This document shows positions 9,163-30,944 of a stretch of 64,000 nucleotides of DNA, one piece after another (position 1 is the stretch's first letter; each line of letters begins with the position of its first letter). A program made the translations under genes and the position numbers. The stretch covers positions 310,001-374,000 of the forward strand of contig CAJQUW010008924.1 in NCBI GenBank assembly GCA_907163375.1, written 5' to 3'. The notes under the pieces are model-generated. The model was given only the letters and a program-made list of their open reading frames with translations. It did not search any database and was not told the DNA's origin. The DNA is from Prostheceraeus crozeri. Taxonomy: Eukaryota; Platyhelminthes; Polycladida; Euryleptidae.

Positions 9163-9203
9163 AGTAGTGACCCCATCCCAGGCGCAAGGGCAAAATGCGA
9201 AAT

Positions 9204-9227
9204 GCTGAGTCATCATGCTGACTCAGC
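9204..9227. promoter_or_regulatory. Terminal inverted pair of AP-1-type sites
   Basis: GCTGAGTCA and TGACTCAGC form a 9-bp perfect inverted repeat separated by 6 bp, about 43 bp inside the terminus. Each half contains TGASTCA, the bZIP/AP-1 consensus. The same block lies near the right terminus (about 30880-30903). It could bind a host bZIP factor or be a terminal-protein or transposase site; the sequence alone cannot decide. Confidence 0.5.
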
Positions 9228-9374
9228 CCCCCCCCTCTGGAAGGAAGGGAGAGCGCCAAGGATGTGTTGGGAGGAATGGGTCCGAGAGGAGGAAACAGGT
9301 CCCCCCCTCTGGAAGGAAAGAAGAAAGGAGGAGTGATGAGGCAAGGGGTAGAATCTCGGAAGGATAGAGTGAGA

Positions 9375-10235
9375 AAAGGCGGGTTTTGGTGGTTTTGGAA
9401 TGAGAAAGGTCGGAATTGGTCATGAAGGAGTGTTCGGATGGGAAAATGGAGTGCAGATTCGGACTCTACGTGAACGTTTGGGTCTAGGAACGTCTTCCCA
9501 GGTCAATCGTAAAGAAAAAGTGCTGACCCCCCCACCTCAGCAACGATCTTCCAACTTTGGTTGTAGACATCGTAGAAAGTCGTGCAATAGCTCATTTGAA
9601 AGCTAAAAGTGAGAAAAATGCAGTGGAAAGCTCAGTTTGGTCCACTTTTCCTGGCTTTAGGGAGGAAAATGGCAGGAAAACGTCAGAGTTGAAAAAGTCG
9701 GGTTTTGGAGGTTTTGGGATGAGAAAGGTCGGAATTCGTCATGAAGGAGTGTTCGGATGGGAAAATGGAGTGCAGATTCGGACTTTTTGGCCACTTTTGG
9801 GTCTAGGAACGTCTTCCCAACTCAATCGGAGAGAAAAAGTGCTGACCCCCCCCCCTCGGCAACGATCTTCCAACTTTGGTTGTAGACATCGTAGAAAGTC
9901 GTGCAATAGCTCATTTGAAAGCTAAAAGTGAGAAAAATGCAGTGGAAAGCTCAGTTTGGTCCACTTTTCCTGGCTTTAGGGAGGAAAATGGCAGCAAAAC
10001 GTCAGAGTTGAAAAAGTCAGGTTTTGGAGGTTTTGGGATGAGAAAGGTCGGAATTCGTCATGAAGGAGTGTTCGGATGGGAAAATGGAGTGCAAATTCGG
10101 ACTGTACGTGAAATTGTGGGTCTAGGAACGTCTTCCCAACTCAATCGGAGAGAAAAAGTGCTGACCCCCACCCCTCGGCAACGATCTTCCAACTTTGGTT
10201 GTAGACATCGTAGAAAGTCGTGCAATAGCTCATTT
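9375..10235 (+). repeat. Subterminal ~319-bp tandem repeats, left end
   Basis: A unit of about 319 bp is repeated head to tail. The block CAACTTTGGTTGTAGACATC recurs at about 9550, 9869 and 10188, and a more diverged copy continues after the Sola-like insertion at 14806-15120. Each unit contains a C-rich run followed by an open frame of about 100 codons, so long open frames (to 135 codons) run across units. The strict period and lack of family resemblance argue that this is repeat structure, not a gene. Confidence 0.85.
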
Positions 10236-10491
10236 CGATGTATTTTTGTCGAACCGACGTATGACGAAATTTTTGAAAATTGAGAAAAATACATTTTAAT
10301 GATCTCCCGCTAATGTCTGATAATAGCAATATATCGTAAATGCATATTTATAATTGCAAATTATATTTTCATTAAGTCATAAAATGACGTATGTCAAATT
10401 TTGCCAATGGTGTGTTTTGTCAGACCGACGTATCAGTTCGAATTTTCAATACATTATTGTTTTTATGGTTATTTCATGCTCTTATTGACGT

Positions 10492-10746
10492 TATAGCAAT
10501 GTCTGCCGGCCAAGTACACGAATGATGCTTCGTAAGGTGAGATATCTATGCAAGGTGACAGTAAGACAAGTGACTCATTGACTGAAGAAGAATATCGAAA
10601 ACAGACTGACTTCATTTATAGCAATGTCTGCCGGCCAAGTACACGATTGATGCTTCGTAAGGTGAGATATCTATGCAAGGTAACAATAAGACAAGTGACT
10701 CATTGACTGAAGAAGAATATCGAAAACAGACTGACTTCATTTTAGA
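10492..10746 (+). repeat. Tandem duplication of a 126-bp unit
   Basis: The block starting GCAATGTCTGCCGGCCAAGT at 10495 recurs at 10621 and extends to ATCGAAAACAGACTGACTTC in both copies, with only three or so differences. It lies in the 5' region of the Sola-like transposase, just upstream of its ATG at 10765, and may carry promoter sequence. Confidence 0.85.
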
Positions 10747-11073
10747 CTTGATATCTGCATTAACATGACGTCGAGAATGCAGCTGAAAAAGGCCGAGAGG
10801 ATAGCTGAAATGATAACGAATATGGACGATAACTCCGATAGTGATAATAGTGATTCAAATGTTTCTTCTATCTTAAATCAAACGCCAGAATCATTTATCA
10901 TTGAGGGCCCTACACCTGAAGATAGCAATGACAACACATGTAAGAAACGAAAATCAAGTAGAAGAGCGGAAACAATAGCAAAGAATGTGAAATACTCCCT
11001 CTTCACCGAGATCCATCCAATTGCAATCAATTAGTACTTCCAAAAGACCAATCTCGGGACGAATTTTTATTAA

Positions 11074-11112
11074 AGTTGCGAGCTTCCGAGCGCTTCGCTC
11101 GTCTTCAGGCAG
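11074..11112 (-). ncRNA. Hammerhead-like motif of a Penelope-like element
   Basis: On the minus strand CTGAAGA is followed by a 5-bp stem (CGAGC/GCTCG) with a 5-base loop and then GAAG. This matches the hammerhead core CUGANGA-stem II-GAAA apart from the last base. Hammerhead motifs occur in the terminal repeats of Penelope-like elements. The GAAA to GAAG change would probably impair cleavage; I did not confirm stems I and III. Confidence 0.4.
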
Positions 11113-11339
11113 GCAGAGGTAAAAGTGAAATCAGAGGGCAGCGCCATTCAATCACATTGCCAAGAGTAAAATTCACTTCGACTACATGATATAATAGTTG
11201 ACACAAAGACATTACTCAAGTGCTCTATACAAAAATTCTATGTTATACATACTACTATCAAACTGAATAGTAGCATTAGAATTAAGTGAGAAATGAGAAA
11301 AAGTTACGGAAGCAAGAAAGTTTAATACTGATGAAGTAG

Positions 11340-11998
11340 TCACTGTAGGATAGACTTCCATCTTTGATCCACCAAATATCCCTTATCACGATTGAATGTT
11401 TCATTGGTCATAATGTGCAGGCCTTCTTTGATGATTCTCCTCTTCCAGTTTTGCTCGACATCAATAACTCGGAAGCTTTGAAAGTTTGGCCTGTGATTCG
11501 CTGTATGACAATGCTCACTGATTGCCGACCTGAGCCGAATATCCCTGACGTCCACTTCATGCTCCTTCTTTCTATCCTTGGCTCTTCTTCCTGTCTGTCC
11601 GATGTACACCTTCTCACAGTCCGCACACTCCTGCTTATACACCACACCACCTCGATCCAAGCCATCAATCTTGTCCAGCTTCTTCCTGCTGATCATGTCT
11701 CCCAAGCTCCTTCCTTTCGAGTATCGCACTCTGAGATCCAGTCTCCTACCCAGCGCTTCAATTTTCTCCTGAATTCCTGGAACATATGGTATTCTCAAGA
11801 TCGGTCGCTTGTCCTCTATCTCTTCACGTTGGGTTCTGACTGAATACAGCTGCCTCTTGACCTGTCTTCTAGGATATCCATTCTTGACAAAGGTATCATA
11901 CAGCTTCTCCTTTTCTGCTTGCAAATCCTCTTCTCGACTACACACCCTTTCCGCTCGCTTCCTGAGGCACGACACCACTCCCCACTTTACTTGCTTGC
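11340..11998 (-). pseudogene. Penelope-like ORF C-terminus with GIY-YIG endonuclease
   Basis: The frame is open from the insertion boundary to a stop at 11340. The first part (KNGYPRRQVKRQL) matches the segment after the RT thumb in Penelope-like elements. A linker with PYVPG-x-QEKIEALGRR follows, then the endonuclease: GVVYKQECADCEKVYIGQTG gives the GVVY...YIG pair with a Cys-x2-Cys insert. Downstream are an Arg, a conserved His in ISEHCHTANH and a Glu near the end (KEGLHI). RT motifs are absent, so this is a dead fragment with an intact endonuclease region. Confidence 0.85.
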
Positions 11999-13687
11999 AA
12001 TGTGAGGATTCGAAAAGCAAGAAATGATGGATTCGAATACGTTTCAACTGCAAGTGGTAATATCAAACCTGTTCGACGTGTTCTGGGAGCACCTTGTGAT
12101 TCTTCTTCAAGATGTGTTATTAGAAACTTTAAATGCAAAAACATTTCCGACGAGCAAAGGACTAATCTGTTAAATTGCTACTACGATCTCCCGTCTTTGG
12201 ATGAGAAAAGAAAGTATTTACAACCGCACATCTTGCTGGAGATGCCTTCGAGTGTGAAAGGTAGGAGAACGAGAACATTTACATATTTCTTGACGATCGA
12301 CGGGGAAAGAATGCAGGTATGCAAAATTATGTTCCTCTCCACACTCGGAATTACGGAAAGACAAGTCAGGACAATGTTAGATAAAACTGACAATAACGGT
12401 GTCTTACAACCTGAGTTAAGAGGTGGACGAAAAGGTTAGCGACAAAGTTCTGATAAGCAATTGACTGAAGCAATTGAAAATCATATAAATTTATTTCCAA
12501 AAGTGGAATCGCATTACTGCCGGCGGGATACGTCCAGTATGTTTCTCTCCCGGTGTTTATCAGTTCCCATTATGTACGAAATGTACATGAAATCTAATGA
12601 TAAAATTGACTGTTCGTACAGCAAGTACTACTCGGTGTTCAAAAGCCTAAACTTACGTTTCCACAAACCGACGAAAGACTTGTGTAAAATCTGTGTAACT
12701 TTCCATCAAAGCAGCGATGAAGAGAAAATCGTACTTCAAGCAAGGTATGATTCGCATATAAAAGAAAAGGAAGAAACAAGAAGAGACAGACTTGAAAGTA
12801 AGTCAAAAGCGTCCACTGTCGATACTCATGTGGCAGCATGCTTTGATCTTGAGCAAGTTATCTACCTGCCGAAGAGTAGCAGATCAGACATTTTCTATAA
12901 AAGACGCCTATCAAACTTTAACTTCACAATATTTAATTTGAAGGACTCATCAGTTGACTGTTTTGTGTGGCATGAAGCAATTGCAGGAAGGGGCGCCAAT
13001 GAAATTGCCCCTTGTATATATCAATTTCTAGTTGAGCAAGATAACAAAGGAATGAAAACTATTGATCTCTACTGTGATGGGTGTGCCGGTCAAAACAAAA
13101 ATTCTATATTACCTGCAATGTTCCATCATGCCCTTTGTGAATCAAAGAACATCAAAGAAATAAGATTGATAATTCTTGTTCCAAACCACGGACACAATGA
13201 AAATGACTCAGTACACGCTTGTATCGAAAGGGCACTGAAGAAAAACACAGAAATTTTTGTCCCATCACAACTTGGAGTAATTATCAGTGAGGCCAGAAAA
13301 GCAGGCAAAAGGTACGCTGTTCACGAAGTCTGTACGGCAGATATCTTGGACTGGAAGACGCGGTCGCAACAAATAGGCTTTCTTAGGAATAGAAGTTCTA
13401 TCAAAGGCAATGCCATCAATTGGACAAAGATGGCACAGATGCATTTCGACAAAGATAGCCTTACAGAGATGAACTTCAAAGAAAGGCATCTGGAAGAATT
13501 TGACGGCATGCTTCTATGCGAAAGAAGACGACAAATTACTCCCTCAAGCATCCCACAGTCTGCATACAACGGCCCATTAAAAATAAGCTCTAGCAAGTAC
13601 GATGATTTGAAATCTCTGTGTGTGGGACCTATGCCCGTTGTCAAGCATTCTGACTATCAAAAATTTTTTCTCGGTCTTCGCCACTAA

Positions 13688-14801
13688 TGCAGTTTTCTTG
13701 TAGTAAAATATAACTATCAAGTGGAATTTGAAGCTTTTATATTTTAATTTGTATGAATGGTTACAGCATAGATGATATCAAATAGTTGAGCAAGAGTAGG
13801 TCCAATAATAATTCTTTTATTCTGGTTCATATCGTACATATTTAAAATATTGGGGATACTAAGTAGGCCTACATTCTGTTACAGCGATGCTATGATACCT
13901 GGGCTATTCGACAATGTAACATACCAAAAACTATTCATTCAATTAATAAATAAACTATCTTGATATATTATTTGCTGTAAATACACATGTAGGGGCGTAG
14001 GCCTACAGAAAAATACTAAAGTAACTCAGTAGGCCTACATGTACTTGTTGTACATGTATACTACTGTTACAATACAATATACATGTATCACATAACTGTA
14101 GGTGTAAGAAATAAAGTTCTGTTATACATGCAGGTTATTATATTAGTTGTTGCTGATCTAAGGCAGACATAGATAACTGACTAGTTACTGAATAGAGGTT
14201 AGTGTAGGCATAGGCCTACTACTATTTTCTCTTTTCCCCCACTTTAGAAGTAGGTTTACACTATCGGGTTTCTTTGCTTCAACAATGGATACTCAAATAT
14301 CTAAGCTACTTCAACAGCAGGATTGTAGATTGATTCAGTAAAAAAACATAATTTTATGTCATTGCTTCTTTTAGCTGTTAATGCACTCAGATAATCAGTA
14401 ATTATCAACTGAAATAATCCACTCTAGATATCAAAGGTATGTCGTGAATTCATTAAAATAAAAATATACATACCTTTATTCATATGTAATTACACTTTCA
14501 GCAATTAAACATTTAGTAGGGAATCAAAGTAAATGACGTATCAGAAAAAAATTATCCAAAAATTTTTGTCAAACTGACGTATCACTAATCAGCTAATTAA
14601 CCGTTAGAGTAATTAGTTGAAAATAAGTAATCCAAGCATTGAAATATATTTGATGACATATCTGATAATATGGAAAAGTTTTGAATGGTCAATCCTTATT
14701 TTAATTGATGAAAATTCATTTTGAAGTTGATCAGTTCGTTTATTTGTCGCTATTGCAAAATGACAAAAATCATTATACGTCAGTTTGACAAAAATGCATC
14801 G
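13688..14801 (+). other. 3' non-coding part of the Sola-like element
   Basis: It is AT-rich with no gene. It holds four TAGGCCTA octamers (13864, 13998, 14030, 14211). TTTTTGTCAAACTGACGTAT at about 14562 repeats the terminal motif internally, matching a similar internal copy near the left end (about 10415). Such subterminal copies are candidate transposase-binding sites. Confidence 0.6.
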
Positions 14802-14805
14802 ATTT

Positions 14806-15120
14806 GATAGCTAAAAGTGAGAAAAATGCAGTGGAAAGCTCAGTTTGGACTAATTTTTCTGGCTTTAGGGAAGAAAATGGCAGGAAAACGTCAGAGTTGG
14901 AAAAGGCGAGTGTTGGATGTTTTGGGATGAGAAAGGTCGGAATTCGTCATGAATGAGTTTTCGTATGGGAAAATGGAGTGCCAATTCGGACTCTACGTGA
15001 AATTTTGGGTTAGGAAGGATGTTTCCAGCGACATCGGAGAGAAAAAGTTTTGAGGACGTCCCCCCCCCCTCCTGCCAAACTTCCAACTTTGGTTGTAGAC
15101 ATCGTAGAAAGTCGTGCTAT
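14806..15120 (+). repeat. Last, diverged subterminal repeat unit of the left arm
   Basis: The 319-bp unit resumes directly after the Sola-like insertion (GATAGCTAAAAGTGAG...) and ends near the C-rich run at 15060-15074 and the GTTGTAGACATCGTAGAAAG block. It is more diverged than the outer units, and the sequence then becomes unique before the first gene. Confidence 0.75.
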
Positions 15121-15377
15121 AGCTCATTTGAAACCTTGGAGTGAGACAAATTCAGTGGAAAACATGGCTTGTTCGTATCTGCCTCCGTTTAGAGGTGAGA
15201 CGTTATTGAAAATTTGGGACATTGACGAAAAAACGACAGAGTTAGAATGTTTAAGAAAATCGCTCTAGTGGGTGAAGCAAGCCTCGGACGGAAAAACAGA
15301 GACCAGATTTGGCATCAGCGTGTCATGTTACACCTGAATGTCCTTCATGCTATGTCTCCGAAGTGAAAGGAAGAAAG

Positions 15378-15800
15378 ATGACAGAAGCAGTAAAGTTTAC
15401 GAATGAATTTTGTTCACTACGTTTTCATCGACAAAGTCTTCGTGGTGTGATTAGGGACTACATCATCTCCTTTCATCATGAAAAGGCAGACTTAGAATTT
15501 GATATCGCTAAAGGTTACTTCGTTTTCCAACAACTCATGGACAGTTTGATGAATAAAGATGTGAAAGGACGATTAGCTGCAGAGATTGAATTTGAGAAAG
15601 TGACTGATGAACATGCAGGTGAACGTGTAGTGTTTCATTTTGCGTCCTATTCTGCAGAGACGATACATGATCCCAAAGATTTCTATCAGCGACACATGGC
15701 GAAAATTGCATCTCGACTAGATTCATTTCATGAGCATGGATCCAACTTGCTCTTATGTCGCATAAAACACATTCATATTCAACTCAATGTGCTAAACTAG
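15378..15800 (+). CDS. PolB-N-terminal-domain-like small protein (left arm)
   Basis: 140 codons from the first ATG; the frame is open about 23 codons further upstream, with a Cys-x2-Cys pair that could come from an earlier exon. The order SLRGVIRDY, DVKGRLAAEIEF, then HEHGSNLLLCRIKHIHIQLN matches, by eye, the GRxRxY...GSNW block that precedes the exonuclease domain in many Polinton-type PolB proteins; the PolB remnant at 48.2-48.6 kb has GRARVY, LRGRLIAQI and KGSNWVI in the same order. Here it is a stand-alone gene. A shorter paralogue lies at 17617-17922. A role in replication is inferred. The copy at 29344-29766 is identical in protein. Confidence 0.6.
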   Translation: MTEAVKFTNEFCSLRFHRQSLRGVIRDYIISFHHEKADLEFDIAKGYFVFQQLMDSLMNKDVKGRLAAEIEFEKVTDEHAGERVVFHFASYSAETIHDPKDFYQRHMAKIASRLDSFHEHGSNLLLCRIKHIHIQLNVLN

Positions 15801-15938
15801 ATTTGACTACAAGATTTGGGAAAAGCATTCATGAGTCAGTCGTCCGCGTGCCTCCTTTTTCCCTGCCGCAACGAAGTCAGGGGAGAAACGGAGGTCTCTG
15901 ATTCGCTCACATAGTGTCAAATGTGGATTCGCGGGAGA

Positions 15939-15946
15939 CTATAAAA
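15939..15946 (+). promoter_or_regulatory. TATA box upstream of the polyproline gene
   Basis: CTATAAAAG lies about 137 bp before the ATG at 16077 and follows a GC-richer stretch with an AP-1-type TGAGTCA at 15832. Transcription would start near 15970, leaving a 5' leader of about 100 nt. The mirror copy is near 29198-29205. Confidence 0.55.
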
Positions 15947-16076
15947 GCAGACGTCTCCTCATTTTCTCTTCATTTCATTCTCTTGACTTGGAAAGTGTGT
16001 GTGTGACTTGCTGAAGCCATTCTCCCCTCTCAACTTTGTCTGATCAATCCTGTTTGCAAATTTACAAGTGAGTGTC

Positions 16077-16307
16077 ATGACTGTCTGGCCTAAACCTTAC
16101 CAGCATTTTAGAAGAGAGACGCAGGAGAATGTGTGGCCGATGATTGTACAAGCTTATTTTGTTGAACCATCGCCACCACCGCCTCCACCACCTAGACGCT
16201 TTACGTTTAAGTCTTTTAGGGAATTGAAACGCAATTCGGATCCTAAGCCCAAGACATTTAATTTACTGGACGATGACGAAGACTTAGACTTTGGTGATAA
16301 GCTTTAA
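16077..16307 (+). CDS. Small polyproline protein (left arm)
   Basis: 76 codons from the first ATG (an upstream GTG at 16068 is unlikely in a eukaryote). It starts MTVWPKPYQHFRRETQ, has a run of seven prolines, then a basic segment and a very acidic end (LLDDDEDLDFGDKL). The N-terminal WPKPY-x2-FRRETQ block looks conserved-domain-like, but I do not know its function. A TATA box lies 137 bp upstream. The right-arm copy (28837-29067) differs by Asp to Gly. Confidence 0.5.
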   Translation: MTVWPKPYQHFRRETQENVWPMIVQAYFVEPSPPPPPPPRRFTFKSFRELKRNSDPKPKTFNLLDDDEDLDFGDKL

Positions 16308-16385
16308 ATCCTGTGAACGCTCCAAAAGGTCCCCTTAAGAACCACCTCATATGTCACTGCTAAGCTAACAATTTTCTTTTATCTG

Positions 16386-17114
16386 ATGATCATGAATGTA
16401 CTTAGTGGTGTTCTTTCGTTACAGACTGCCATGGCCATGAATCCTACTCCAACTGCTGCATCACTGAATCCTCAACATATCGAGCTGTGGAATCCGAAAA
16501 TTGAAAAGGTAATTCACGGCTATCCTACCTACAAACAACAAGTGCGCTACAACGGTGTTCGACTCTATCTTCAAACGCCGGTGGTATACTTACCAAAAGT
16601 GGATACGCAAGTAAATCGTTGCGGTCAAAACCTGAGTATTCCTATTGATAATTGGTTGCGTCAGCAGCTTGACATTTTAGAAGACGTTGTGAGGCAAAAG
16701 GCTCTTATTCCTACTGAACTATTACAGTTGTGGCCAGAAAAGAAAACTTCTTATTATAAACCATTGTATCGCGGCACTCGCTGCTATATTTTACAAAGCA
16801 AGTATTGCAAAGTCACTTCAGGAGTGACAGTTGAACAGTCAGTTGAAACAGAATTGTCATCGTTAGGTGCAGGCTTTTATTCCTTTCATATTGAGGTACC
16901 TGCTGTTTATGTGCGACCTCATCAATCTGACGGTAATTTGATTTCTCTCAATTTGCGCATTGCTCAAATTCATCATCAACCTGAGTTAACAGGACTTGAT
17001 CACATTGAGAAAGTCATTGATTCTTGTGTCAAAGAGTGTCAAGAACCTGTCACTAAACCTAAACGTCGTCGCACATCAAAGAAAGATGGTGCTACCACCA
17101 AAGAGAAATCTTAA
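16386..17114 (+). CDS. 242-residue Polinton protein, possibly ssDNA-binding (left arm)
   Basis: ATG at 16386 gives 242 codons, ending in a Lys/Arg-rich tail (KPKRRRTSKKDG). The core has RYNGVRLYLQTP, then NLSIPIDNWLRQQLDILEDVV, then YRGTRCYILQSKYCKVTS. The same order of beta-rich and W-x2-L motifs recurs in the 137-residue gene at 18221 and in the decayed gene at 34017-34625 of the other Polinton, so it is a conserved Polinton family. A compact beta-rich core with a basic tail suggests nucleic-acid binding, which is inference. Its last 29 nt overlap the zinc-ribbon gene in another frame. Confidence 0.6.
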   Translation: MIMNVLSGVLSLQTAMAMNPTPTAASLNPQHIELWNPKIEKVIHGYPTYKQQVRYNGVRLYLQTPVVYLPKVDTQVNRCGQNLSIPIDNWLRQQLDILEDVVRQKALIPTELLQLWPEKKTSYYKPLYRGTRCYILQSKYCKVTSGVTVEQSVETELSSLGAGFYSFHIEVPAVYVRPHQSDGNLISLNLRIAQIHHQPELTGLDHIEKVIDSCVKECQEPVTKPKRRRTSKKDGATTKEKS

Positions 17115-17265
17115 GTATTGTAATCAGTTAGTATGTAGTGAATGTGGAAAACGCGGCCTTGCGCGTTATGTTCAAATAAAACATTGTCATAATGTTGTAT
17201 GTATCTTTTGTTATGTAAAGGACAGACATCCTTGTAAAGTTCCTGCTCAATGTATTATTTTGTAA
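17086..17265 (+). CDS. Short zinc-ribbon protein (left arm)
   Basis: 59 codons from ATG 17086. There are two Cys-x2-Cys knuckles (CSEC and CIFC), a His-Cys-His cluster between them, and a final HPCKVPAQC; eight Cys/His residues could hold two zinc ions. Similar knuckles lie just before the exonuclease domain in Polinton PolB, and here an exonuclease-like frame follows within 25 nt. The two may be exons or pieces of one ancestral gene. The copy at 27879-28058 is identical. Confidence 0.5.
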   Translation: MVLPPKRNLKYCNQLVCSECGKRGLARYVQIKHCHNVVCIFCYVKDRHPCKVPAQCIIL

Positions 17266-17287
17266 TGAAGTCTTTTTGATATTGTAG

Positions 17288-17345
17288 GTTGTCATCTTCA
17301 TAGACAGTGAGGGAACACCCATGCAGCATGGGTCTATGTAAAAAA
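17288..17345 (+). pseudogene. Stub of the exonuclease-like gene, deletion scar
   Basis: Only about 12 codons of the exonuclease start (through FIDSEGTP) remain. At ATGCAG/CATGGG (about 17325) about 511 bp present at 27309-27820 of the right arm is missing. The join uses a short repeated CAG/CATG sequence, suggesting microhomology-mediated deletion. The upstream TTTTTGATATTGTAG resembles a splice acceptor. Confidence 0.75.
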
Positions 17346-17616
17346 AATTTTTAATCCTTGTGAATGAATGATGATCATTTTATTAAGTGTATTCTGTACT
17401 TGTGAATTTTGTCTGGTGTTGAATAAACTTACAGTGGAACATGATTTTTATTTCTGTTTTACTCATACTGGAAGTCATTGAAGCAATGTGAAATCTATAG
17501 TTACAGCGTTTATGATGGCGCATCGTACCTTAAGTAACCACATGTGTCATTTGACTCTTGATAAACAATGATTCGATGGATTTTTACAAGCTTGGAAACT
17601 TACATTTGAAGTAGAG

Positions 17617-17922
17617 ATGAATGATATGAAAGTGGCAGCAACTGAAAGTCTTCCTCTCTTCAAAAGATTAATAGAGAGTTTACAACCTGAAGATGTGAAG
17701 GGTAGACTCATTGCTTATATAGAGTTGAAAGATTTGCAAAAGCCACTTCGTTTTGAATTCTATTGCTCAGAATGGACTACTCTTAGTGACCTATCTTATG
17801 CACGACATACGGAGAAAATTATGGAGAAAATGGAAGAGACGATGGAAGGAAATGCATACGTTGTTCAATATATCATGATTCAAATGAGTGTGTTTACATC
17901 CACGACTTTGTTTGATCGTTGA
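17617..17922 (+). CDS. Short paralogue of the PolB-N-terminal-like protein (left arm)
   Basis: 101 codons from ATG 17617. PLFKRLIESLQPEDVKGRLI and EGNAYVVQYIMIQMSVF align with the equivalent blocks of the 15378 gene (DSLMNKDVKGRLAAEIEF and HGSNLLLCRIKHIHIQL), so the two are paralogues. The frame is open upstream for about 19 codons without ATG and reads plausibly, so a spliced upstream exon is possible. The copy at 26712-27017 is identical. Function unknown; a replication role is inferred from similarity to PolB. Confidence 0.5.
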   Translation: MNDMKVAATESLPLFKRLIESLQPEDVKGRLIAYIELKDLQKPLRFEFYCSEWTTLSDLSYARHTEKIMEKMEETMEGNAYVVQYIMIQMSVFTSTTLFDR

Positions 17923-18197
17923 CACATTGTGTAGATGCAATAAAGATTTTTTTCACTGAGTATTCTGTAATGGTGTATAGAGCAACATGAGTCATTGCGC
18001 TTTGTTAGATAAATGAAAGCGTCTTTGTTCGAGAAAAGGGGCGTGTCACTCAAGTCTTTGTGAAGACTAGAACGACTTTGTAAAAGGAAAGGTTTCCATC
18101 CACGCAGTCAAAAGTTCACGTGCGATAACTCTTTGTCACATAACAAAGACAGGGAAAACGGGAAAAGGGAAACGTATGTGATTGGAGCTAGGTCTGC

Positions 18198-18205
18198 TTA
18201 TAAAG
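18198..18205 (+). promoter_or_regulatory. TATA-like box close to an ATG
   Basis: CTTATAAAGC lies about 20 bp upstream of the ATG at 18221. If used, transcription would begin at or just after this ATG, giving a very short leader or initiation at a downstream ATG (18251). Mirrored in the right arm. Confidence 0.4.
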
Positions 18206-18220
18206 CGGACGACTGAGATC

Positions 18221-20620: not shown

Positions 20621-20782
20621 ACTTTTACTTCTATCTATTGAGCGAGAATCCCATCTTTATGTCAAAATAAAAACGAGACAGTCTGTACATGATATGTTAT
20701 TGAATGAAAGACATTTCATCACAGTCACACATAGTTAATACTGATGGTAGCAGAAAACAAAGTTTTTATGACTCACGTCACC

Positions 20783-20860: not shown

Positions 20861-20999
20861 CAGTTGATATGTAAGTTATGATATGAAGTGATCAGGAGTT
20901 GGACGCATGTTACAAGGCACTCACTCACAACACCCCATAGAAAACGCCATGGAGCGAAAAAGCAAAACATCAACCACAATAGAGAGGAAGCATTCATCA

Positions 21000-22304: not shown

Positions 22305-22334
22305 TGGGAGATGAGGCCGACATAGGTTATTTAT

Positions 22335-23522
22335 TTGAAGTCGACCTCATCTATCCAGAATAGGACCGTTGATTTTCCTCTCGCACCCGAATCTGGCATA
22401 GTCAGTCCAGATATGTTCTCTCCCTTTATGGAAGAACACAATAAGAAATATGAGGCGGAAAATGACTTAAAATATAAAGCCACTAGGAAGTTGTTGCTCA
22501 CCCAATTGAACAAGCAGCAATACATCGTGCACTATTCTATCCTCAAATTCTATCTAGGTATGGGGATGCAACTTGACAAAGTACATTGCGCTATCCAACT
22601 TAGGCAGAAGCCCTTTCTAAAACCGCATATAGAATTTGATAGTAAGAAACGGGCTGAATCCAAGAATCCTTTCGAAAAGGACTTCTTTAAATTTAAGAAT
22701 AATGCCCTCTTTGGTAAAAGCATGGAGGATGTAAGAAAGCGCATGGACTATCGCATCGCAACTGATCCGGAAACAAGTATCAAGTTATGTCGCTCGCCGT
22801 TGTTTTGCCACCATGATGTCATTTCCGCAGACATCACTGGTTTTAAAATGTTAAAATCTAAAGCAGAACTTTGTAAGCCCATTTATGTCGGTCAAGCTGT
22901 CTTAGATCACTCCAAGTTAGAAATGTACAAGTTATTTTACCACACTTTTAAGACATGTCCACTTCTCCAACGTGTGGAATTAGTAGGAGGTGATACAGAC
23001 AGCTTCTTCCTAGCTTTGACAACCACGAGCCAAGTCAAGCAGGAAGACATTTTAAAATATTTAGCACCCAAGTTTGATAGTTCCAACTATCCCACTGACC
23101 ATCCGCTTTACTCTACCTCAAATAAAGCGAAGCTTGGCTGCTTCAAGGATGAGTGTGCCGGCAAACAGATAGAGGAGATGATCTTGCTTCGCCCCAAGAT
23201 GTACTCCATGAAGCTAAAATCCTCAGAGCTTTCTATAAAACGGGCGAAAGGCATCTCGAAGTCAATCGTTAGAAAAATGACACATAGGGGCTATCAAGAT
23301 GCCTTAGATTCTCTTAAAATTAAAAAAGTAGAAATGACCATTTTAAAATCACAGTCGCATCAAGTCAGAACAACGACGTTTAGGAAACGAGGTCTCTCAG
23401 CTTGGGAAGACAAGCGAAGCTGGATGAGTCCTAATCACTCATTACCGTACGGCCATCCAGACACTCATCTACCTCCACCCAAGAGACAGAAACTTTCTCC
23501 TCCTCCGTCCGGCGATGTCTGA
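22335..23522 (+). pseudogene. PolB C-terminal half, right arm
   Basis: Mirror copy of the minus-strand PolB fragment, 395 codons from ATG 22335. It lacks the residues derived from the spacer and has a small deletion near its start. Motif C (GGDTDSFF) and the C-terminus are intact; one Met to Ile change separates the two copies. It is truncated and cannot be an active polymerase. Confidence 0.9.
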
Positions 23523-23679
23523 TGATGAATGCTTCCTCTCTATTGTGGTTGATGTTTTGCTTTTTCGCTCCATGGCGTTTTCTATGGGGTGTTGTGAGTG
23601 AGTGCCTTGTAACATGCGTCCAACTCCTGATCACTTCATATCATAACTTACATATCAACTGGTTTTTCCTGACGTTGTT

Positions 23680-23755
23680 TTCTCCCTGCACATGAGTGAC
23701 TTTGTTTTCTCCCTGCATATCAGTGACTTTGTTTTCTCCGGTGACGTGAGTCATA
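23680..23755 (-). repeat. Three short GAGAAAACAAAGTCACT repeats (right arm)
   Basis: Reverse-complement copy of the 20783-20860 array (AGTGACTTTGTTTTCTCC repeated), with the same number of units. Confidence 0.7.
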
Positions 23756-23919
23756 AAAACTTTGTTTTCTGCTACCATCAGTATTAACTATGTGTGACTG
23801 TGATGAAATGTCTTTCATTCAATAACATATCATGTACAGACTGTCTCGTTTTTATTTTGACATAAAGATGGGATTCTCGCTCAATAGATAGAAGTAAAAG
23901 TTTTGATCATTTTATAAGA

Positions 23920-24450
23920 TGGGTAGGGTTAGAAATAAAGTTGATGATTGTAAAGTTACATATCACTGTTTGTAAGATAGGCGAAATATAAAATGAAGTC
24001 ATAACCAAGTTAGTGTTTGTAAAGCTAGAAATAAAGTTGATGTTTGTAAAGTTAGAAATTAAGTTGATGATTGTAAAGTTATAACCATATCACTGTTTGT
24101 AAGATAGGTGAAATGTAAATGAAGTCAGAATCACTTCACTGTTTGCAAAGTTAGAAATAAAGTTGACGTTTGTAAAGTTAGAAATAAAGTTATCACCATG
24201 TCGCTGTTTGTAAGATAGGTGAAATGTAAATGAAGTCAGAATCCGTTCACTGTTTGTAAAGTTAGAAATAAAGTTGACGTTTGTAAAGTTAGAAATAATG
24301 TTGATGATTTTTAAGTTTGAATTAATGTTAAAATCATTTCACTGTTTGTACAGTTTGTAAGATAAGTGAAATATAAAATGAAGTCATAAGTATTTCACTA
24401 TTTGCAAGATAGGTAAAGTATAAAATAAAGTCAAAACCATGTTAGAGTTT
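23920..24450 (-). repeat. AT-rich tandem repeats, right arm, longer version
   Basis: Reverse complement of the 20185-20620 array. About 111 extra bases around 24190-24300 repeat the GTTTGTAAAGTTAGAAATAA and GTAAGATAGGTGAAATG units once more. Since the arms were identical when formed, this is later gain here or loss on the left. Confidence 0.8.
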
Positions 24451-24800
24451 GTAAGTTGACATCCTCACCAACGCATGTAACATCATGACAATTTCTTCGG
24501 CTTAGGAAACATCAACCACTTTGCTGACTCATGTCTATAAATAGCTCTGACTCATGAAGGGGTAAAGCGCCAGTCATACGAATCTAATCAGTCTTGTTCA
24601 ACTTTTTCACCGACACGTGTGTGGGCGTGTCATTCAACATCGATGGCGCCTCACGTCAGACAGCATGACCTTTTCACCGACAAGTGTGTGGACATCCTTT
24701 CATGTCTATAAATAGCGCTGACTCATCATAAAGCGAAGAACCTTGTTGATGACCTTTTCACTGACAAATGTGTGAGCGATAGTTCATTGCGATGACTCAT

Positions 24801-25358
24801 TCAAAACACATCATGTGATTGACACGATTCTATTAACTGTGACTCATACAGATAACGCATTAGAGATTTAACAATGTCAGCTACTTTACTGATATCACGT
24901 AAACCAGTCATGATACAATGTCCGTTGTGAAACACTGCAATATGTACAGGATGCCACTTCCGAATCAGAGCAGCAGGAAAGAGTTCAGTTTCATAAAATA
25001 TACAATGTTTACTGGTTTTAATGTTGGCTAGATTCACTAACCTCTTCAATTGAACAGACACTACTATATTCTTCAATGTCAGGGGACTGAGGCGGAGATG
25101 AGGCATGAGTGTTCGCATTTTCTTGACGACTTCGTAACACATGGACTGCATCACGAAATGAGAAAGGTTTCCTAGGACTTGGATTTTGCCACAGCGAAAG
25201 ATTTGAAGATTTCGACCGTTGCTCATGCGAATGACCAACATTTGTGGACGACTGCGATGATAGACTGAATCGGGAAGATGGGTATGCAACTGTTCTAAAT
25301 CGATGTCTCTTCTGAGATTCATTTCGCGCATGGCGTTGATGATGCGGATGGGGAGCAT
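24801..25358 (-). CDS. TBP-like two-lobed protein (right arm)
   Basis: Same as the left-arm gene, with one Ser to Gly change in the second lobe. The stop codon TAA is CAA here, so the frame runs six codons further (185 residues in all). Conservation of an open frame in both arms is expected from recent duplication and is not evidence of selection. Confidence 0.65.
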   Translation of the reverse strand: MLPIRIINAMREMNLRRDIDLEQLHTHLPDSVYHRSRPQMLVIRMSNGRNLQIFRCGKIQVLGNLSHFVMQSMCYEVVKKMRTLMPHLRLSPLTLKNIVVSVQLKRLVNLANIKTSKHCIFYETELFPAALIRKWHPVHIAVFHNGHCIMTGLRDISKVADIVKSLMRYLYESQLIESCQSHDVF

Positions 25359-25647
25359 GACTCACAAATGACATGAGGGTTGAGTGAACTTCCCTTTTAT
25401 ACTTTTCCCATGAGGGTTTTGGAATCACAATGTAGCAGTGATCATTATGTAGAATTATCTCTTGAATGCGAATAAATACAATGCCGTCTCCTACGTTAAT
25501 GACACGACAAGACTTGGATAGGATAGCGCGATGCAACCTTCGCAGATGAAAGCGTTCTAGAGTTATCTGAAGTTGACGTTTCGTATCATGAAATGTAACA
25601 CACTGACTTTTCCATGATACATGGAGCCATGCTGATAATTTCCACAT
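25018..25647 (-). CDS. 209-codon ORF overlapping the TBP-like gene (right arm)
   Basis: Identical in protein to the 18986-19615 ORF, with the same 341-nt overlap in the other frame. See the left copy for the possible PC4-like reading of its N-terminal half. Confidence 0.45.
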   Translation of the reverse strand: MWKLSAWLHVSWKSQCVTFHDTKRQLQITLERFHLRRLHRAILSKSCRVINVGDGIVFIRIQEIILHNDHCYIVIPKPSWEKYKREVHSTLMSFVSHAPHPHHQRHARNESQKRHRFRTVAYPSSRFSLSSQSSTNVGHSHEQRSKSSNLSLWQNPSPRKPFSFRDAVHVLRSRQENANTHASSPPQSPDIEEYSSVCSIEEVSESSQH

Positions 25648-25998
25648 GATTACAACCTGAGTGATCCTGAGTGAGGAAGGGTATGCCTAAGAAAGAAGGA
25701 GAGAGAGTCATGTTCATGTGTGGCATGGTGAGTGTGCATTTGCTTTCTTGATACGGTGGCCGTTAGGCCGTGGTCTCATAAAGACCGATGGTGCGTTCTC
25801 AGTGTGTGGAGAGTGTTACTGTAGTTGATCATCATCAACATGGACATAATTTTTAAAGGTGATGGAGACAAGATAGGGATTCAACGTAAACAACCTTCCG
25901 TCCCTGCGCGGACCCATGTAGATGGTTTGAATTTTAATTTCGAAGGAGTAGAATCATTTTCCCAAAATGGGGAGTGGTTTGCAATTGAGTAAGTCGAA

Positions 25999-26412
25999 TT
26001 AGCTGCCCTCCTTTTCATGGATGATGAGACAGTGTCTATCCATATGCACATACATGTATCGTCTTTCCATGATGGGAACTTGTGGCCGCTTCCCATTGTG
26101 TCGAACAATTTCTTTGGGAATGGTGAGATTTTTTTTCAGTAATGTTTCAAGAGTATTGAATTGTAACCGTGTCCAATAGTCTAACGGCACACACATGGCC
26201 AGTCCATACTTTGTTGACATAACCTTTAGATAATCTATCCGATGACTTGGAGTTTTTATGGTCACGGCTTCTCCATGATGAGTTATCTTTTGATTGAAAG
26301 CATTTTTACCCGATGCTAAAGTAAGGGAGTTCAGTGTACCCAGTGCGAGAGCAGAGGAGTTGATGTCTTCGAGAAACTGCATGGTTAGCGCAAGGACGGA
26401 AATGATTGCCAT
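25999..26412 (-). CDS. 137-residue paralogue of the 242-residue protein (right arm)
   Basis: Copy of the 18221-18634 gene with Glu to Lys (LLKKNL) and Trp to Arg (GKRPQV) changes. The Trp to Arg change hits a residue with no counterpart in the larger paralogue, so its effect is unclear. Confidence 0.5.
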   Translation of the reverse strand: MAIISVLALTMQFLEDINSSALALGTLNSLTLASGKNAFNQKITHHGEAVTIKTPSHRIDYLKVMSTKYGLAMCVPLDYWTRLQFNTLETLLKKNLTIPKEIVRHNGKRPQVPIMERRYMYVHMDRHCLIIHEKEGS

Positions 26413-26711
26413 GATCTCAGTCGTCCGCTTTATAAGCAGACCTAGCTCCAATCACATACGTTTCCCTTTTCCCGTTTTCCCTGTCTTTGTTATGTGACAA
26501 AGAGTTATCGCACGTGAACTTTTGACTGCGTGGATGGAAACCTTTCCTTTTACAAAGTCGTTCTAGTCTTCACAAAGACTTGAGTGACACGCCCCTTTTC
26601 TCGAACAAAGACGCTTTCATTTATCTAACAAAGCGCAATGACTCATGTTGCTCTATACACCATTACAGAATACTCAGTGAAAAAAAATCTTTATTGCATC
26701 TACACAATGTG

Positions 26712-27017
26712 TCAACGATCAAACAAAGTCGTGGATGTAAACACACTCATTTGAATCATGATATATTGAACAACGTATGCATTTCCTTCCATCGTCTCTT
26801 CCATTTTCTCCATAATTTTCTCCGTATGTCGTGCATAAGATAGGTCACTAAGAGTAGTCCATTCTGAGCAATAGAATTCAAAACGAAGTGGCTTTTGCAA
26901 ATCTTTCAACTCTATATAAGCAATGAGTCTACCCTTCACATCTTCAGGTTGTAAACTCTCTATTAATCTTTTGAAGAGAGGAAGACTTTCAGTTGCTGCC
27001 ACTTTCATATCATTCAT
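26712..27017 (-). CDS. Short PolB-N-terminal-like paralogue (right arm)
   Basis: Identical protein to 17617-17922. In this arm the exonuclease-like gene is still present about 280 bp downstream on the plus coordinate (upstream in transcription), which shows the ancestral order: zinc-ribbon, exonuclease, this gene. Confidence 0.5.
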   Translation of the reverse strand: MNDMKVAATESLPLFKRLIESLQPEDVKGRLIAYIELKDLQKPLRFEFYCSEWTTLSDLSYARHTEKIMEKMEETMEGNAYVVQYIMIQMSVFTSTTLFDR

Positions 27018-27292
27018 CTCTACTTCAAATGTAAGTTTCCAAGCTTGTAAAAATCCATCGAATCATTGTTTATCAAGAGTCAAATGACACATGTGGTTAC
27101 TTAAGGTACGATGCGCCATCATAAACGCTGTAACTATAGATTTCACATTGCTTCAATGACTTCCAGTATGAGTAAAACAGAAATAAAAATCATGTTCCAC
27201 TGTAAGTTTATTCAACACCAGACAAAATTCACAAGTACAGAATACACTTAATAAAATGATCATCATTCATTCACAAGGATTAAAAATTTTTT

Positions 27293-27856
27293 TTACATAG
27301 ACCCATGCTGTTGACAATAATATAGATACAGGTCATAAACGTCATAGAGACTACAATGCCAGCGTGAAGAGAGTTTTGCAATGTAGGTAGCTTTATTTCT
27401 AGTATTACAATGGGATGGTGGTTTGTACAGGTGATGCCTCTCACCGAAACATATTGCCCTGTAAAAAATCATTTCATCTCTAAACTTCTTTTGATCACAA
27501 TGCATATGATAGTCTTGTCTTACACGATCTACCCAACATGGTAAATATAAATTATCAATGTGCAACTGAAGTGTTGTTGCTTCTCGTTCAGAATCATTTC
27601 CTAATATTTTAACAATATGAAAACCTGACAGCCACCGTTTGAAATCACTTATCAAATACGTTTCATTTACAAATCCAATAAGAATCAAAATAGAAGGATC
27701 AAGTCCATGCACATGACGTCGTGACTATTCGTCTTTGTGTGGAGGACAGTAGGCAAATCTATGATATACACTAACAACAGTTTGGTCACTTTCTCTCATT
27801 GCAATAGCACTCAATTCCTGCATGGGTGTTCCCTCACTGTCTATGAAGATGACAAC
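27293..27856 (-). pseudogene. DEDD exonuclease-like gene, right arm only
   Basis: The frame starts after a splice-acceptor-like TTTTTGATATTGTAG with VVIFIDSEGTPMQELSAIAM, the D-x-E motif of DnaQ-type 3'-5' exonucleases. It continues through HVHGLD and LISDFKRW, and ends with SSRWHCSLYDVYDLYLYY, where a His-x4-Asp fits the last DEDDh motif. One in-frame TAG at 27725-27727 splits it, so it is a pseudogene or reads through. No ATG precedes the first motif, so its start must be spliced or lost. Similar frames are common in invertebrate genomes as uncharacterised proteins. It could proofread or process ends in Polinton replication (inference). It is deleted in the left arm. Confidence 0.6.
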
Positions 27857-27878
27857 CTACAATATCAAAAAGACTTCA

Positions 27879-28058
27879 TTACAAAATAATACATTGAGCA
27901 GGAACTTTACAAGGATGTCTGTCCTTTACATAACAAAAGATACATACAACATTATGACAATGTTTTATTTGAACATAACGCGCAAGGCCGCGTTTTCCAC
28001 ATTCACTACATACTAACTGATTACAATACTTAAGATTTCTCTTTGGTGGTAGCACCAT
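27879..28058 (-). CDS. Short zinc-ribbon protein (right arm)
   Basis: Identical to 17086-17265. It ends 23 nt before the start of the exonuclease-like frame, supporting the idea that the two belong to one transcript. Confidence 0.5.
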   Translation of the reverse strand: MVLPPKRNLKYCNQLVCSECGKRGLARYVQIKHCHNVVCIFCYVKDRHPCKVPAQCIIL

Positions 28059-28758
28059 CTTTCTTTGATGTGCGACGACGTTTAGGTTTAGTGACAGGTT
28101 CTTGACACTCTTTGACACAAGAATCAATGACTTTCTCAATGTGATCAAGTCCTGTTAACTCAGGTTGATGATGAATTTGAGCAATGCGCAAATTGAGAGA
28201 AATCAAATTACCGTCAGATTGATGAGGTCGCACATAAACAGCAGGTACCTCAATATGAAAGGAATAAAAGCCTGCACCTAACGATGACAATTCTGTTTCA
28301 ACTGACTGTTCAACTGTCACTCCTGAAGTGACTTTGCAATACTTGCTTTGTAAAATATAGCAGCGAGTGCCGCGATACAATGGTTTATAATAAGAAGTTT
28401 TCTTTTCTGGCCACAACTGTAATAGTTCAGTAGGAATAAGAGCCTTTTGCCTCACAACGTCTTCTAAAATGTCAAGCTGCTGACGCAACCAATTATCAAT
28501 AGGAATACTCAGGTTTTGACCGCAACGATTTACTTGCGTATCCACTTTTGGTAAGTATACCACCGGCGTTTGAAGATAGAGTCGAACACCGTTGTAGCGC
28601 ACTTGTTGTTTGTAGGTAGGATAGCCGTGAATTACCTTTTCAATTTTCGGATTCCACAGCTCGATATGTTGAGGATTCAGTGATGCAGCAGTTGGAGTAG
28701 GATTCATGGCCATGGCAGTCTGTAACGAAAGAACACCACTAAGTACATTCATGATCAT
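28030..28758 (-). CDS. 242-residue Polinton protein (right arm)
   Basis: Identical in protein to 16386-17114, including the Lys/Arg-rich tail and the 29-nt overlap with the zinc-ribbon gene. Confidence 0.6.
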   Translation of the reverse strand: MIMNVLSGVLSLQTAMAMNPTPTAASLNPQHIELWNPKIEKVIHGYPTYKQQVRYNGVRLYLQTPVVYLPKVDTQVNRCGQNLSIPIDNWLRQQLDILEDVVRQKALIPTELLQLWPEKKTSYYKPLYRGTRCYILQSKYCKVTSGVTVEQSVETELSSLGAGFYSFHIEVPAVYVRPHQSDGNLISLNLRIAQIHHQPELTGLDHIEKVIDSCVKECQEPVTKPKRRRTSKKDGATTKEKS

Positions 28759-28836
28759 CAGAGAAAAGAAAATTGTTAGCTTAGCAGTGACATATGAGGT
28801 GGTTCTTAAGGGGACCTTTTGGAGCGTTCACAGGAT

Positions 28837-29067
28837 TTAAAGCTTATCACCAAAGTCTAAGTCTTCGTCATCGTCCAGTAAATTAAATGTCTTGGGCTTA
28901 GGACCCGAATTGCGTTTCAATTCCCTAAAAGACTTAAACGTAAAGCGTCTAGGTGGTGGAGGCGGTGGTGGCGATGGTTCAACAAAATAAGCTTGTACAA
29001 TCATCGGCCACACATTCTCCTGCGTCTCTCTTCTAAAATGCTGGTAAGGTTTAGGCCAGACAGTCAT
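28837..29067 (-). CDS. Small polyproline protein (right arm)
   Basis: Copy of 16077-16307 with one Asp to Gly change before the acidic tail. The matching TATA box is about 135 bp upstream near 29200. Confidence 0.5.
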   Translation of the reverse strand: MTVWPKPYQHFRRETQENVWPMIVQAYFVEPSPPPPPPPRRFTFKSFRELKRNSGPKPKTFNLLDDDEDLDFGDKL

Positions 29068-29343
29068 GACACTCACTTGTAAATTTGCAAACAGGATTGA
29101 TCAGACAAAGTTGAGAGGGGAGAATGGCTTCAGCAAGTCACACACACACTTTCCAAGTCAAGAGAATGAAATGAAGAGAAAATGAGGAGACGTCTGCTTT
29201 TATAGTCTCCCGCGAATCCACATTTGACACTATGTGAGCGAATCAGAGACCTCCGTTTCTCCCCTGACTTCGTTGCGGCAGGGAAAAAGGAGGCACGCGG
29301 ACGACTGACTCATGAATGCTTTTCCCAAATCTTGTAGTCAAAT

Positions 29344-29766
29344 CTAGTTTAGCACATTGAGTTGAATATGAATGTGTTTTATGCGACATAAGAGCAAGTT
29401 GGATCCATGCTCATGAAATGAATCTAGTCGAGATGCAATTTTCGCCATGTGTCGCTGATAGAAATCTTTGGGATCATGTATCGTCTCTGCAGAATAGGAC
29501 GCAAAATGAAACACTACACGTTCACCTGCATGTTCATCAGTCACTTTCTCAAATTCAATCTCTGCAGCTAATCGTCCTTTCACATCTTTATTCATCAAAC
29601 TGTCCATGAGTTGTTGGAAAACGAAGTAACCTTTAGCGATATCAAATTCTAAGTCTGCCTTTTCATGATGAAAGGAGATGATGTAGTCCCTAATCACACC
29701 ACGAAGACTTTGTCGATGAAAACGTAGTGAACAAAATTCATTCGTAAACTTTACTGCTTCTGTCAT
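29344..29766 (-). CDS. PolB-N-terminal-domain-like small protein (right arm)
   Basis: Identical in protein to 15378-15800. It is the gene nearest the right terminus, about 1.2 kb from the element end. Confidence 0.6.
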   Translation of the reverse strand: MTEAVKFTNEFCSLRFHRQSLRGVIRDYIISFHHEKADLEFDIAKGYFVFQQLMDSLMNKDVKGRLAAEIEFEKVTDEHAGERVVFHFASYSAETIHDPKDFYQRHMAKIASRLDSFHEHGSNLLLCRIKHIHIQLNVLN

Positions 29767-30045
29767 CTTTCTTCCTTTCACTTCGGAGACATAGCATGAA
29801 GGACATTCAGGTGTAACATGACACGCTGATGCCAAATCTGGTCTCTGTTTTTCCGTCCGAGGCTTGCTTCACCCACTAGAGAGATTTTCGTAAACATTCT
29901 AACTCTGTCGTTTTTTCGTCAATGTCCCAAATTTTCAATAACGTCTCACCTCTAAACGAAGGCAGATACGAACAAGCCATGTTTTCTACTGAATTTGTCT
30001 CACTCCAAGGTTTCAAATGAGCTATAGCACGACTTTCTACGATGT

Positions 30046-30720
30046 CTACAACCAAAGTTGGAAGTTTGGCAGGAGGGGGGGGACGTCCTCAAAACTTTTT
30101 CTCTCCAACACCCGCCTTTTCCAACTCTGGCGTTTTCCTGCCATTTTCTTCCCTAAAGCCAGAAAAATTAGTCCAAACTTAGCTTTCAAATGAGCTATTG
30201 CACGACTTTCTACGATGTCTACAACCAAAGTTGGAAGATCGTTGCCGAGGGGTGGGGGTCAGCACTTTTTCTCTCTGATTGAGTTGGGAAGACGTTCCTA
30301 GACCCACAATTTCACGTACAGTCCGAATTTGCACTCCATTTTCCCATCCGAACACTCCTTCATGACGAATTCCGACCTTTCTCATCCCAAAACCTCCAAA
30401 ACCTGACTTTTTCAACTCTGACGTTTTGCTGCCATTTTCCTCCCTAAAGCCAGGAAAAGTGGACCAAACTGAGCTTTCCACTGCATTTTTCTCACTTTTA
30501 GCTTTCAAATGAGCTATTGCACGACTTTCTATGATGTCTACAACCAAAGTTGGAAGATCGTTGCCGAGGGGGGGCGGTCAGCACTTTTAATCTCCGATTG
30601 AGTTGGGAAGACGTTCCTAGACCCAAAAGTGGCCAAAACGTCCAAATCTGCACTCCATTTTCCCATCCGAACACTCCTTCATGACGAATTCCGACCTTTC
30701 TCATCCCAAAACCACCAAAA
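30046..30720 (-). repeat. Subterminal ~319-bp tandem repeats, right end
   Basis: About two and a half units of the same 319-bp repeat as on the left, reverse-complemented (CAACCAAAGTTGGAAG at about 30050, 30225 and 30545). The innermost unit carries a deletion. The left end has about one more unit. Outside the array lies the terminal 220-bp block with the AP-1-type inverted pair. Confidence 0.85.
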
Positions 30721-30944
30721 CCCGCCTTTTCTCACTCTATCCTTCCGAGATTCCACCCCTTGCCTCATCACTCCTCCTTTCTTCCTTCCTTCCAGAAGGG
30801 GGAGGACCTGTTTCCTCCTCTCCGACCCATTCCTCCCAACACATCCTTGGCGCTCTCCCTTCCTTCCAGAGGGGGGGGGGCTGAGTCAGCATGATGACTC
30901 AGCATTTCGCATTTTGTCCTTGCGCCTGGGATGGGGTTACTACT

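What the first reader, a model, noticed from the sequence alone, without database searches (positions are those of the whole stretch)
9163..30944. A palindromic 'snap-back' Polinton that integrated with an intact 6-bp duplication
The element is one end of a Polinton duplicated in inverted orientation, with AG-starting termini and TATACT on both sides. Protein-primed replicating genomes such as adenovirus produce defective palindromic genomes by strand fold-back. Here such a molecule seems to have been integrated as a unit, since the duplication flanks the whole palindrome. It lacks integrase, so the enzyme came from elsewhere. This would be a natural defective-interfering-like Polinton.
Basis: partly seen in the sequence, partly recalled or inferred. 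Interest (0 to 1): 0.88.

Follow-up and report, generated by a model that had tools for sequence, protein, structure and literature searches.

The report
Recurrent palindromic snap-back Polinton insertions
A virus-like mobile element (Polinton) appears to have copied one of its ends back on itself, making a mirror-image genome that was inserted whole into its host's chromosome, and several similar insertions lie elsewhere in the same genome.

Summary
Window 9163-30944 is an inverted duplication of one Polinton end inside a single TATACT duplication, with unrelated DNA on both sides. The right arm is 8.6 kb; the two ends of an ordinary copy share only about 1.1 kb. The centre is a fold-back junction: TGGCA, which follows in the parental PolB gene, complements TGCCA 64 nt upstream. 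The arms differ at 16 of 6403 sites but by 2.6-4.3% from 19 other copies, and 14 of the 16 changes are private to one arm. Assembly fold-back is very unlikely: each arm has its own substitutions and indels, one holds a transposon, and the target duplication is intact. New here: it is not alone. Genome searches found five more inverted-duplicate elements and one with an expanded centre. All five elements with both ends read, the window's included, have perfect, different 6-bp duplications. Four of seven centres show 5-7-nt inverted microhomology across 57-90-nt loops; three do not and have longer middles. Best reading: recurrent snap-back during strand-displacement replication, then insertion by enzymes from other copies, as recalled for adenovirus. 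Joining of two near-identical genomes is not fully excluded. Packaging, interference, integrase source and host remain unknown.

The parts
9157..9162 (.). Left copy of 6-bp target-site duplication TATACT
   Evidence: read directly
30945..30950 (.). Right copy of TATACT
   Evidence: read directly
9163..10235 (+). Left terminal repeat: end motif AGTAGT, about 203 bp outer part, then 319-bp tandem units
   Evidence: many copies genome-wide
10236..14801 (+). Later DNA transposon inside the left arm only (inverted ends CGATG.ATTTTTGTC, ATTT duplication 10232-10235 / 14802-14805, DUF7869 ORF 12440-13684)
14802..22234 (+). Left inner arm, including the rest of the terminal repeat
22230..22234 (+). 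TGCCA, annealing target of the fold-back at the end of the left arm
22235..22298 (-). 64-nt single-copy loop, PolB coding, continuous with the left arm
   Evidence: continuity in other copies
22299..22303 (+). TGGCA, the 5-nt microhomology shared by the parental PolB sequence and the right arm
22299..30944 (-). Right arm, 8646 bp, inverted copy of the left arm including the terminal repeat
21003..22346 (-). C-terminal part of a family B DNA polymerase (left arm, loop and start of right arm)
   Evidence: homologues, some carrying PF03175; own Pfam scan negative
22326..23519 (+). Mirror copy of the PolB fragment in the right arm
   Evidence: Pfam scan negative
19272..19811 (+). TATA-binding-protein-like ORF, left arm
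   Evidence: Pfam PF00352 4.4e-21; PDB 1.2e-8
24804..25361 (-). TBP-like ORF, right arm
   Evidence: Pfam PF00352 3.1e-22
16317..17111 (+). 265-aa ORF, left arm (right copy 28033-28827 -), used as genome-wide probe
27311..27820 (-). 510-bp segment kept in the right arm, deleted from the left arm at 17323/17324

Best explanation
A Polinton genome was replicating as a free linear molecule. A strand started at one terminal repeat and growing through PolB lost its template near the middle of the genome. Its 3' end folded back, paired TGGCA with TGCCA 64 nt upstream, and was extended back to its own start. This gave a mirror-image genome of about 17 kb with a proper terminal repeat at both ends. 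An integrase supplied by another copy inserted it as a unit, making the TATACT duplication. Similar events happened several times in this family. Shown: structure, target duplication, microhomology, arms closer to each other than to 19 other copies, recurrence. Inferred: protein priming and strand displacement as the source of the free 3' end, one molecule as template, and integrase in trans.
For: Junction: 12 of 19 end pieces read past the turn; 10 of them read GTCAGACTGTGGCAAAGG and two have one substitution (TGGCA itself intact in 11 of 12), against TGTGGCACTGGG here. Arms 16 of 6403 against 2.6-4.3% to 19 pieces (two of them the arms of C11280, another case); 10 of the 16 changes derived in the left arm, 5 in the right, 1 ambiguous. 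Target duplications: window TATACT, C62 GATGTC, C381 CTCCCC, C559 AGACAC, C10564 GACCAC: 5 of 5 elements with both ends read. Microhomology 5, 7, 5, 6 nt and loops 64, 86, 90, 57 nt for window, C381, C559, C11280; random inverted joins in one copy reach 5 nt in 0.6% of trials. In a tree of 29 rows both arms of each of 6 elements tested are sister tips. The two ends of an ordinary-looking copy share only about 1.1 kb.
Against: Three of seven centres do not fit the short-loop pattern: C1621 (1539-bp middle, about 1 nt of microhomology), C10564 (1867 bp, none clear), C62 (about 3.1-kb inverted end, several-kb middle, none clear). Copies on different contigs can be almost as alike as the window's arms: L026 and L031 differ by 0.34%, L018 and L026 by 0.54%, so arm likeness alone does not prove one molecule. 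Two of the 16 arm differences involve a base seen in one other copy. Outer terminal repeats differ about ten times more than inner arms, only partly explained. No free DNA form and no priming were observed. The right terminal repeat of C1621 and both ends of C11280 were not found.
Confidence: 0.82

Rival explanations
1. Two broken or unfinished, nearly identical genomes of one replicating pool were joined head to head by microhomology, then integrated.
For: Also gives two ends, an asymmetric centre and microhomology; suits C1621, C10564 and C62 with offsets of 1.5 kb and more. Near-identical copies do exist at separate sites (0.34%).
Against: Four centres have similar small offsets of 57-90 nt, not expected from two independent breaks.
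Confidence: 0.14
2. Assembly or sequencing fold-back artefact.
For: Fold-back chimeras are a known artefact (general knowledge), and raw reads were not available.
Against: Substitutions private to each arm, a transposon and a 510-bp deletion only in the left, an 11-bp deletion only in the right; flanks unrelated yet sharing the 6-bp duplication; further cases on other contigs, four with their own duplication.
Confidence: 0.02
3. An ordinary integrated Polinton was rearranged in the chromosome by inverted duplication or template switching.
For: Chromosomal template switching can make palindromes with short loops (general knowledge).
Against: It would be expected to copy host DNA or to keep the original other end; instead both ends are the same element end within one target duplication (5 of 5 read).
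Confidence: 0.03
4. A Polinton lineage whose normal terminal repeats are this long.
For: The family has many copies.
Against: The other end of an ordinary-looking copy matches this end for only about 1.1 kb; most probe places are single in the listings (100 of 777 places shown; 29 of 29; 81 of 81); the turns differ between elements.
Confidence: 0.02

Closest known systems
Polinton / Maverick elements
   Same: End motif (AGT)2, 6-bp target duplication, PolB, total length near that of vertebrate Mavericks (16,862 +/- 1,678 bp; PMC8097293, section 7 and passages read)
   Different: Same end twice, mirror arms of 8.6 kb (terminal repeats of 46-1,447 bp reported there), no integrase domain found in scanned ORFs, PolB only in part
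Palindromic defective adenovirus genomes (recalled; no paper on them found)
   Same: One end duplicated in inverted orientation in a protein-primed linear genome; snap-back of a displaced or growing strand
   Different: Here fixed in a host genome with target duplications; packaging and interference untested
Snapback genomes of adeno-associated virus (PMC8235507, passages read including abstract passages)
   Same: Self-complementary half genomes, symmetric or asymmetric
   Different: Parvovirus with hairpin ends; those authors propose end joining; the passages read describe virion DNA, not host insertions with target duplications

Membership tests
Polinton / Maverick | Termini (AGT)2 ... (ACT)2 or AG-rich | tested here: met
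   Window both ends; C62 and C10564 both ends AGTAGT; C559 one end AGTGGT; C381 one end ACTAGC; motif from PMC8097293
Polinton / Maverick | 6-bp target-site duplication | tested here: met
   5 of 5 elements with both ends read
Polinton / Maverick | Protein-primed family B polymerase | tested here: inconclusive
   Family B met: fragment with 181 homologues at E <= 0.001, several of the 120 listed with PF03175; own Pfam, PHROG and PDB scans negative; protein priming not testable here
Polinton / Maverick | Retroviral-type integrase | tested here: inconclusive
   None in the scanned ORFs of the palindrome; 6.5 kb of the other end of one copy was read as ORFs, one of them scanned, the rest not fetched
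Polinton / Maverick | Capsid proteins, protease, packaging ATPase | tested here: inconclusive
   No Pfam match to these in scanned ORFs of the palindrome; an ORF in L062 looks Walker-A-like by eye (recalled motif) but has no Pfam match
Snap-back defective genome | Inverted duplication of one genome end with its terminal repeat at both ends | tested here: met
Snap-back defective genome | Short loop with inverted microhomology at the turn | tested here: met
   Window and three others; not met or unclear in C1621, C10564, C62
Snap-back defective genome | Multiplies with a helper and interferes with it | not testable with these tools
   needs expression or copy-number data

The most novel reading that the evidence does not exclude
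Mirror-image Polinton genomes are a regular by-product of about unit length (13.4-18.3 kb in the five measured; 17.2 kb for the window without its transposon) that is multiplied, perhaps packaged, and integrated by helper copies: a standing population of defective Polinton genomes whose inserted remains record extrachromosomal strand-displacement replication.
Probability: 0.35. Interest if true: 0.92.

Novelty: new variant of a known kind. Interest (0 to 1): 0.85.

Why it matters
Replication of Polintons as free, protein-primed linear DNA is, as far as I know, inferred from their genes and end motifs; in the passages read, the jumping-back mechanism is 'expected' for Mavericks (PMC8097293). 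Inserted snap-back genomes would be physical traces of a free 3' end on a strand that starts at a terminal repeat. They make the hypothesis countable in any assembly: turn position, loop and microhomology tell how the polymerase stops, and target duplications show that a molecule seemingly without its own integrase gene can be inserted. They also point to defective genomes as part of Polinton biology.

Tried and rejected
Set aside: assembly artefact, chromosomal inverted duplication, naturally long terminal repeats (see rivals). Literature: nine searches. Polinton with palindromic (15 of 41 listed), adintovirus (25, 15 of 20), Maverick plus protein-primed (70, 15 of 19), two of Polinton/Maverick/defective interfering (87, 10 of 137), inverted duplication (119, 2 of 2), Maverick with palindrom (120, 8 of 15), and adenovirus palindromes (26, 2 of 2; 69, none; 88, 1 of 1). 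No title or abstract start shown reports palindromic Polintons. Only parts of two papers were read, so absence from print is not shown. PHROG and PDB scans of the PolB fragment found nothing. Not done: search for sister copies of the window's junction and for palindromes made from the other element end (patterns did not complete); integrase in ordinary copies; host identity; empty-site search; raw reads. Pairs C1893 (35 kb apart) and C4489 (49 kb apart) were not examined. A first reading of C381 as a 492-bp loop was replaced by an 86-nt loop plus a 354-bp deletion in one arm.

Full report
What is there. The window is part of contig C7419 of a 2.05-Gb genome in 14,165 contigs; the species is not given and was not identified. 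From 9163 to 30944 the sequence is an inverted duplication. The left inner arm (14802-22234) and the right arm (22299-30944) mirror each other around 64 single-copy bases. The element begins AGTAGT at both ends, and TATACT lies immediately outside each end. Stretches of 1.15 kb on the two sides share no match better than E 0.047, so host DNA was not duplicated.

What the arms carry. Each arm has the terminal repeat with 319-bp tandem units, several ORFs without Pfam matches, a TBP-like ORF (PF00352; best PDB match a TATA-binding protein, 1.2e-8), tracts of 27-bp repeats, and at the centre the C-terminal part of PolB on the strand running outward. PolB rests on 181 homologues (120 listed), several with PF03175; direct Pfam, PHROG and PDB scans were negative. 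No integrase domain was seen in the element's ORFs that were scanned. The left arm also holds a later 4.57-kb DNA transposon with a 4-bp duplication, so the element was about 17.2 kb before it.

The family. A probe from the 265-aa ORF gave 1301 first-look candidates; the 40 scored all match. A 24-mer from it occurs 777 times. I fetched 19 end pieces, two of them from C11280. In 13 of 19 the sequence reaches the palindrome's turn, and in 12 it runs on past it into PolB. One ordinary-looking copy, C1309, has a terminal repeat at its far end and a single probe site near the other; its far end matches this end for only about 1.1 kb and then differs. Its near end was not read.

The turn. Ten of the 12 pieces read GTCAGACTGTGGCAAAGG and two have one substitution; the window reads GTCAGACTGTGGCACTGGG. 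TGGCA therefore belongs both to the parental strand and to the start of the return copy, and its complement TGCCA lies 64 nt upstream. That is what a 3' end folding back and priming on itself would leave.

One molecule or two. Outside the main tandem tracts the arms differ at 16 of 6403 sites. Against the 19 pieces each arm differs by 2.6-4.3%. Ten of the 16 changes are derived in the left arm, five in the right, one is ambiguous; in two of the 16 a base of one arm is also seen in one other piece. This suggests arms that were alike when made and diverged later. Against it as proof: pieces from different contigs can be nearly as close (L026-L031 0.34%, L018-L026 0.54%). The outer 203-206 bp have six substitutions and 551 bp of tandem units have 12; some of the latter are alleles of other units, which suggests exchange among units, others are private. 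I have no full explanation for this excess.

Recurrence. Of the 777 places of the 24-mer the first 100 were listed (C30 to C2034). They contain four convergent pairs under 15 kb, C62, C381, C559 and C1621, and none of another orientation under 30 kb (counted by eye). About 0.14 convergent pairs are expected by chance at that density (my estimate). A second probe (29 places, all listed) gave C62 and C10564; a third (81, all listed) gave C559 and the window. C11280 holds two copies 57 kb apart that, in the stretch compared, share 280 24-mers with none of the other 17 pieces and differ by 0.53%, with a fold-back centre and repeat arrays in the parts read; most of its middle was not fetched.

Ends and arms of the others. 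C62 (15.6 kb), C381 (18.0 kb), C559 (18.3 kb) and C10564 (13.4 kb) have perfect 6-bp duplications GATGTC, CTCCCC, AGACAC and GACCAC (sizes from the coordinates). For C1621 only the left end was found, and the ends of C11280 were not found. In 0.8-1.0-kb samples the arms of C62, C381, C559 and C1621 match at 99.4-100%; for C10564 only 56-66 bp could be compared, at about 98%. In a tree of 29 rows over 811 positions the arms of all six elements included are sister tips (supports 0.957-1.0 for four; none given for the window and C381, whose arms are identical there), and the pairs lie apart from each other. Supports of deeper branches were not examined, and C10564 was not included.

Centres. C381: 7-nt microhomology, 86-nt loop, with a 354-bp deletion in one arm (my reading). 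C559: 5 nt, 90-nt loop. C11280: 6 nt, 57-nt loop, reading L018 as parental and allowing one later substitution. Random inverted joins in one copy reach 5 nt in 0.6% of trials. C1621 and C10564 have single-copy middles of 1539 and 1867 bp with little or no microhomology. C62 has only about 3.1 kb of inverted end and keeps internal sequence that matches the far side of C1309, so it is better called an end replacement.

How it probably works. Strand displacement from a terminal repeat leaves a growing 3' end on a strand that begins with that repeat. If it loses its template it can fold back on a short inverted match and be extended to its own start, giving a molecule with two good ends. Such molecules could be replicated and inserted by proteins of intact copies. 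This is how palindromic adenovirus genomes have been explained (recalled). The four readable short-loop turns lie about 7.1-8.9 kb from the end in right-arm coordinates, near the middle of a 17-19-kb genome; this may reflect meeting forks or a length limit, but the 15-kb limit of my pair count and the small number leave it open.

Limits. Raw reads, the free form, the integrase source, interference and packaging were not tested. The patterns for the window junction and for the other element end did not complete. The number of such elements in the genome, about 30 if the 4 in 100 listed places of 777 are typical, is rough; the third probe gave a lower rate (2 pairs in 81 places).

Noticed in passing
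window 19272-19811 (+) and 24804-25361 (-): The Polinton encodes a protein with TATA-binding-protein domains; the best PDB matches are, as I recall their entries, archaeal TBPs. Unusual cargo for a Polinton as far as I recall.
   Followed up: partly
window 45438-46541 (-): Part of a second, different PolB (PF03175) between direct repeats 44660-45516 and 46816-47613: probably a fragment of another Polinton family.
   Followed up: no
window 52459-53634 and 60437-61612: Another pair of 1.2-kb inverted repeats, 99.2% identical, around ORFs with DDE_3 and Tc5-type domains, with a second inverted pair 56086-56550 / 58336-58799 inside.
   Followed up: no
window 15276-15797, 17572-17919; C62 piece L057: Several small ORFs of the element look like paralogues of each other and of a stretch upstream of PolB, judged by eye only.
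   Followed up: no
L035 (C10507:9554-19454): Copy with the usual end followed within about 7 kb by an inverted terminal repeat: perhaps an internal deletion derivative.
   Followed up: no
C11280:18222-28122 and 71697-81597: Fold-back element whose two arms lie 57 kb apart, with long arrays of the satellite-like repeats in the parts read, seemingly expanded.
   Followed up: partly
window 9163-9365 and 30739-30944: Terminal repeats of the two arms differ about ten times more than the inner arms; only partly explained by exchange among tandem units.
   Followed up: partly
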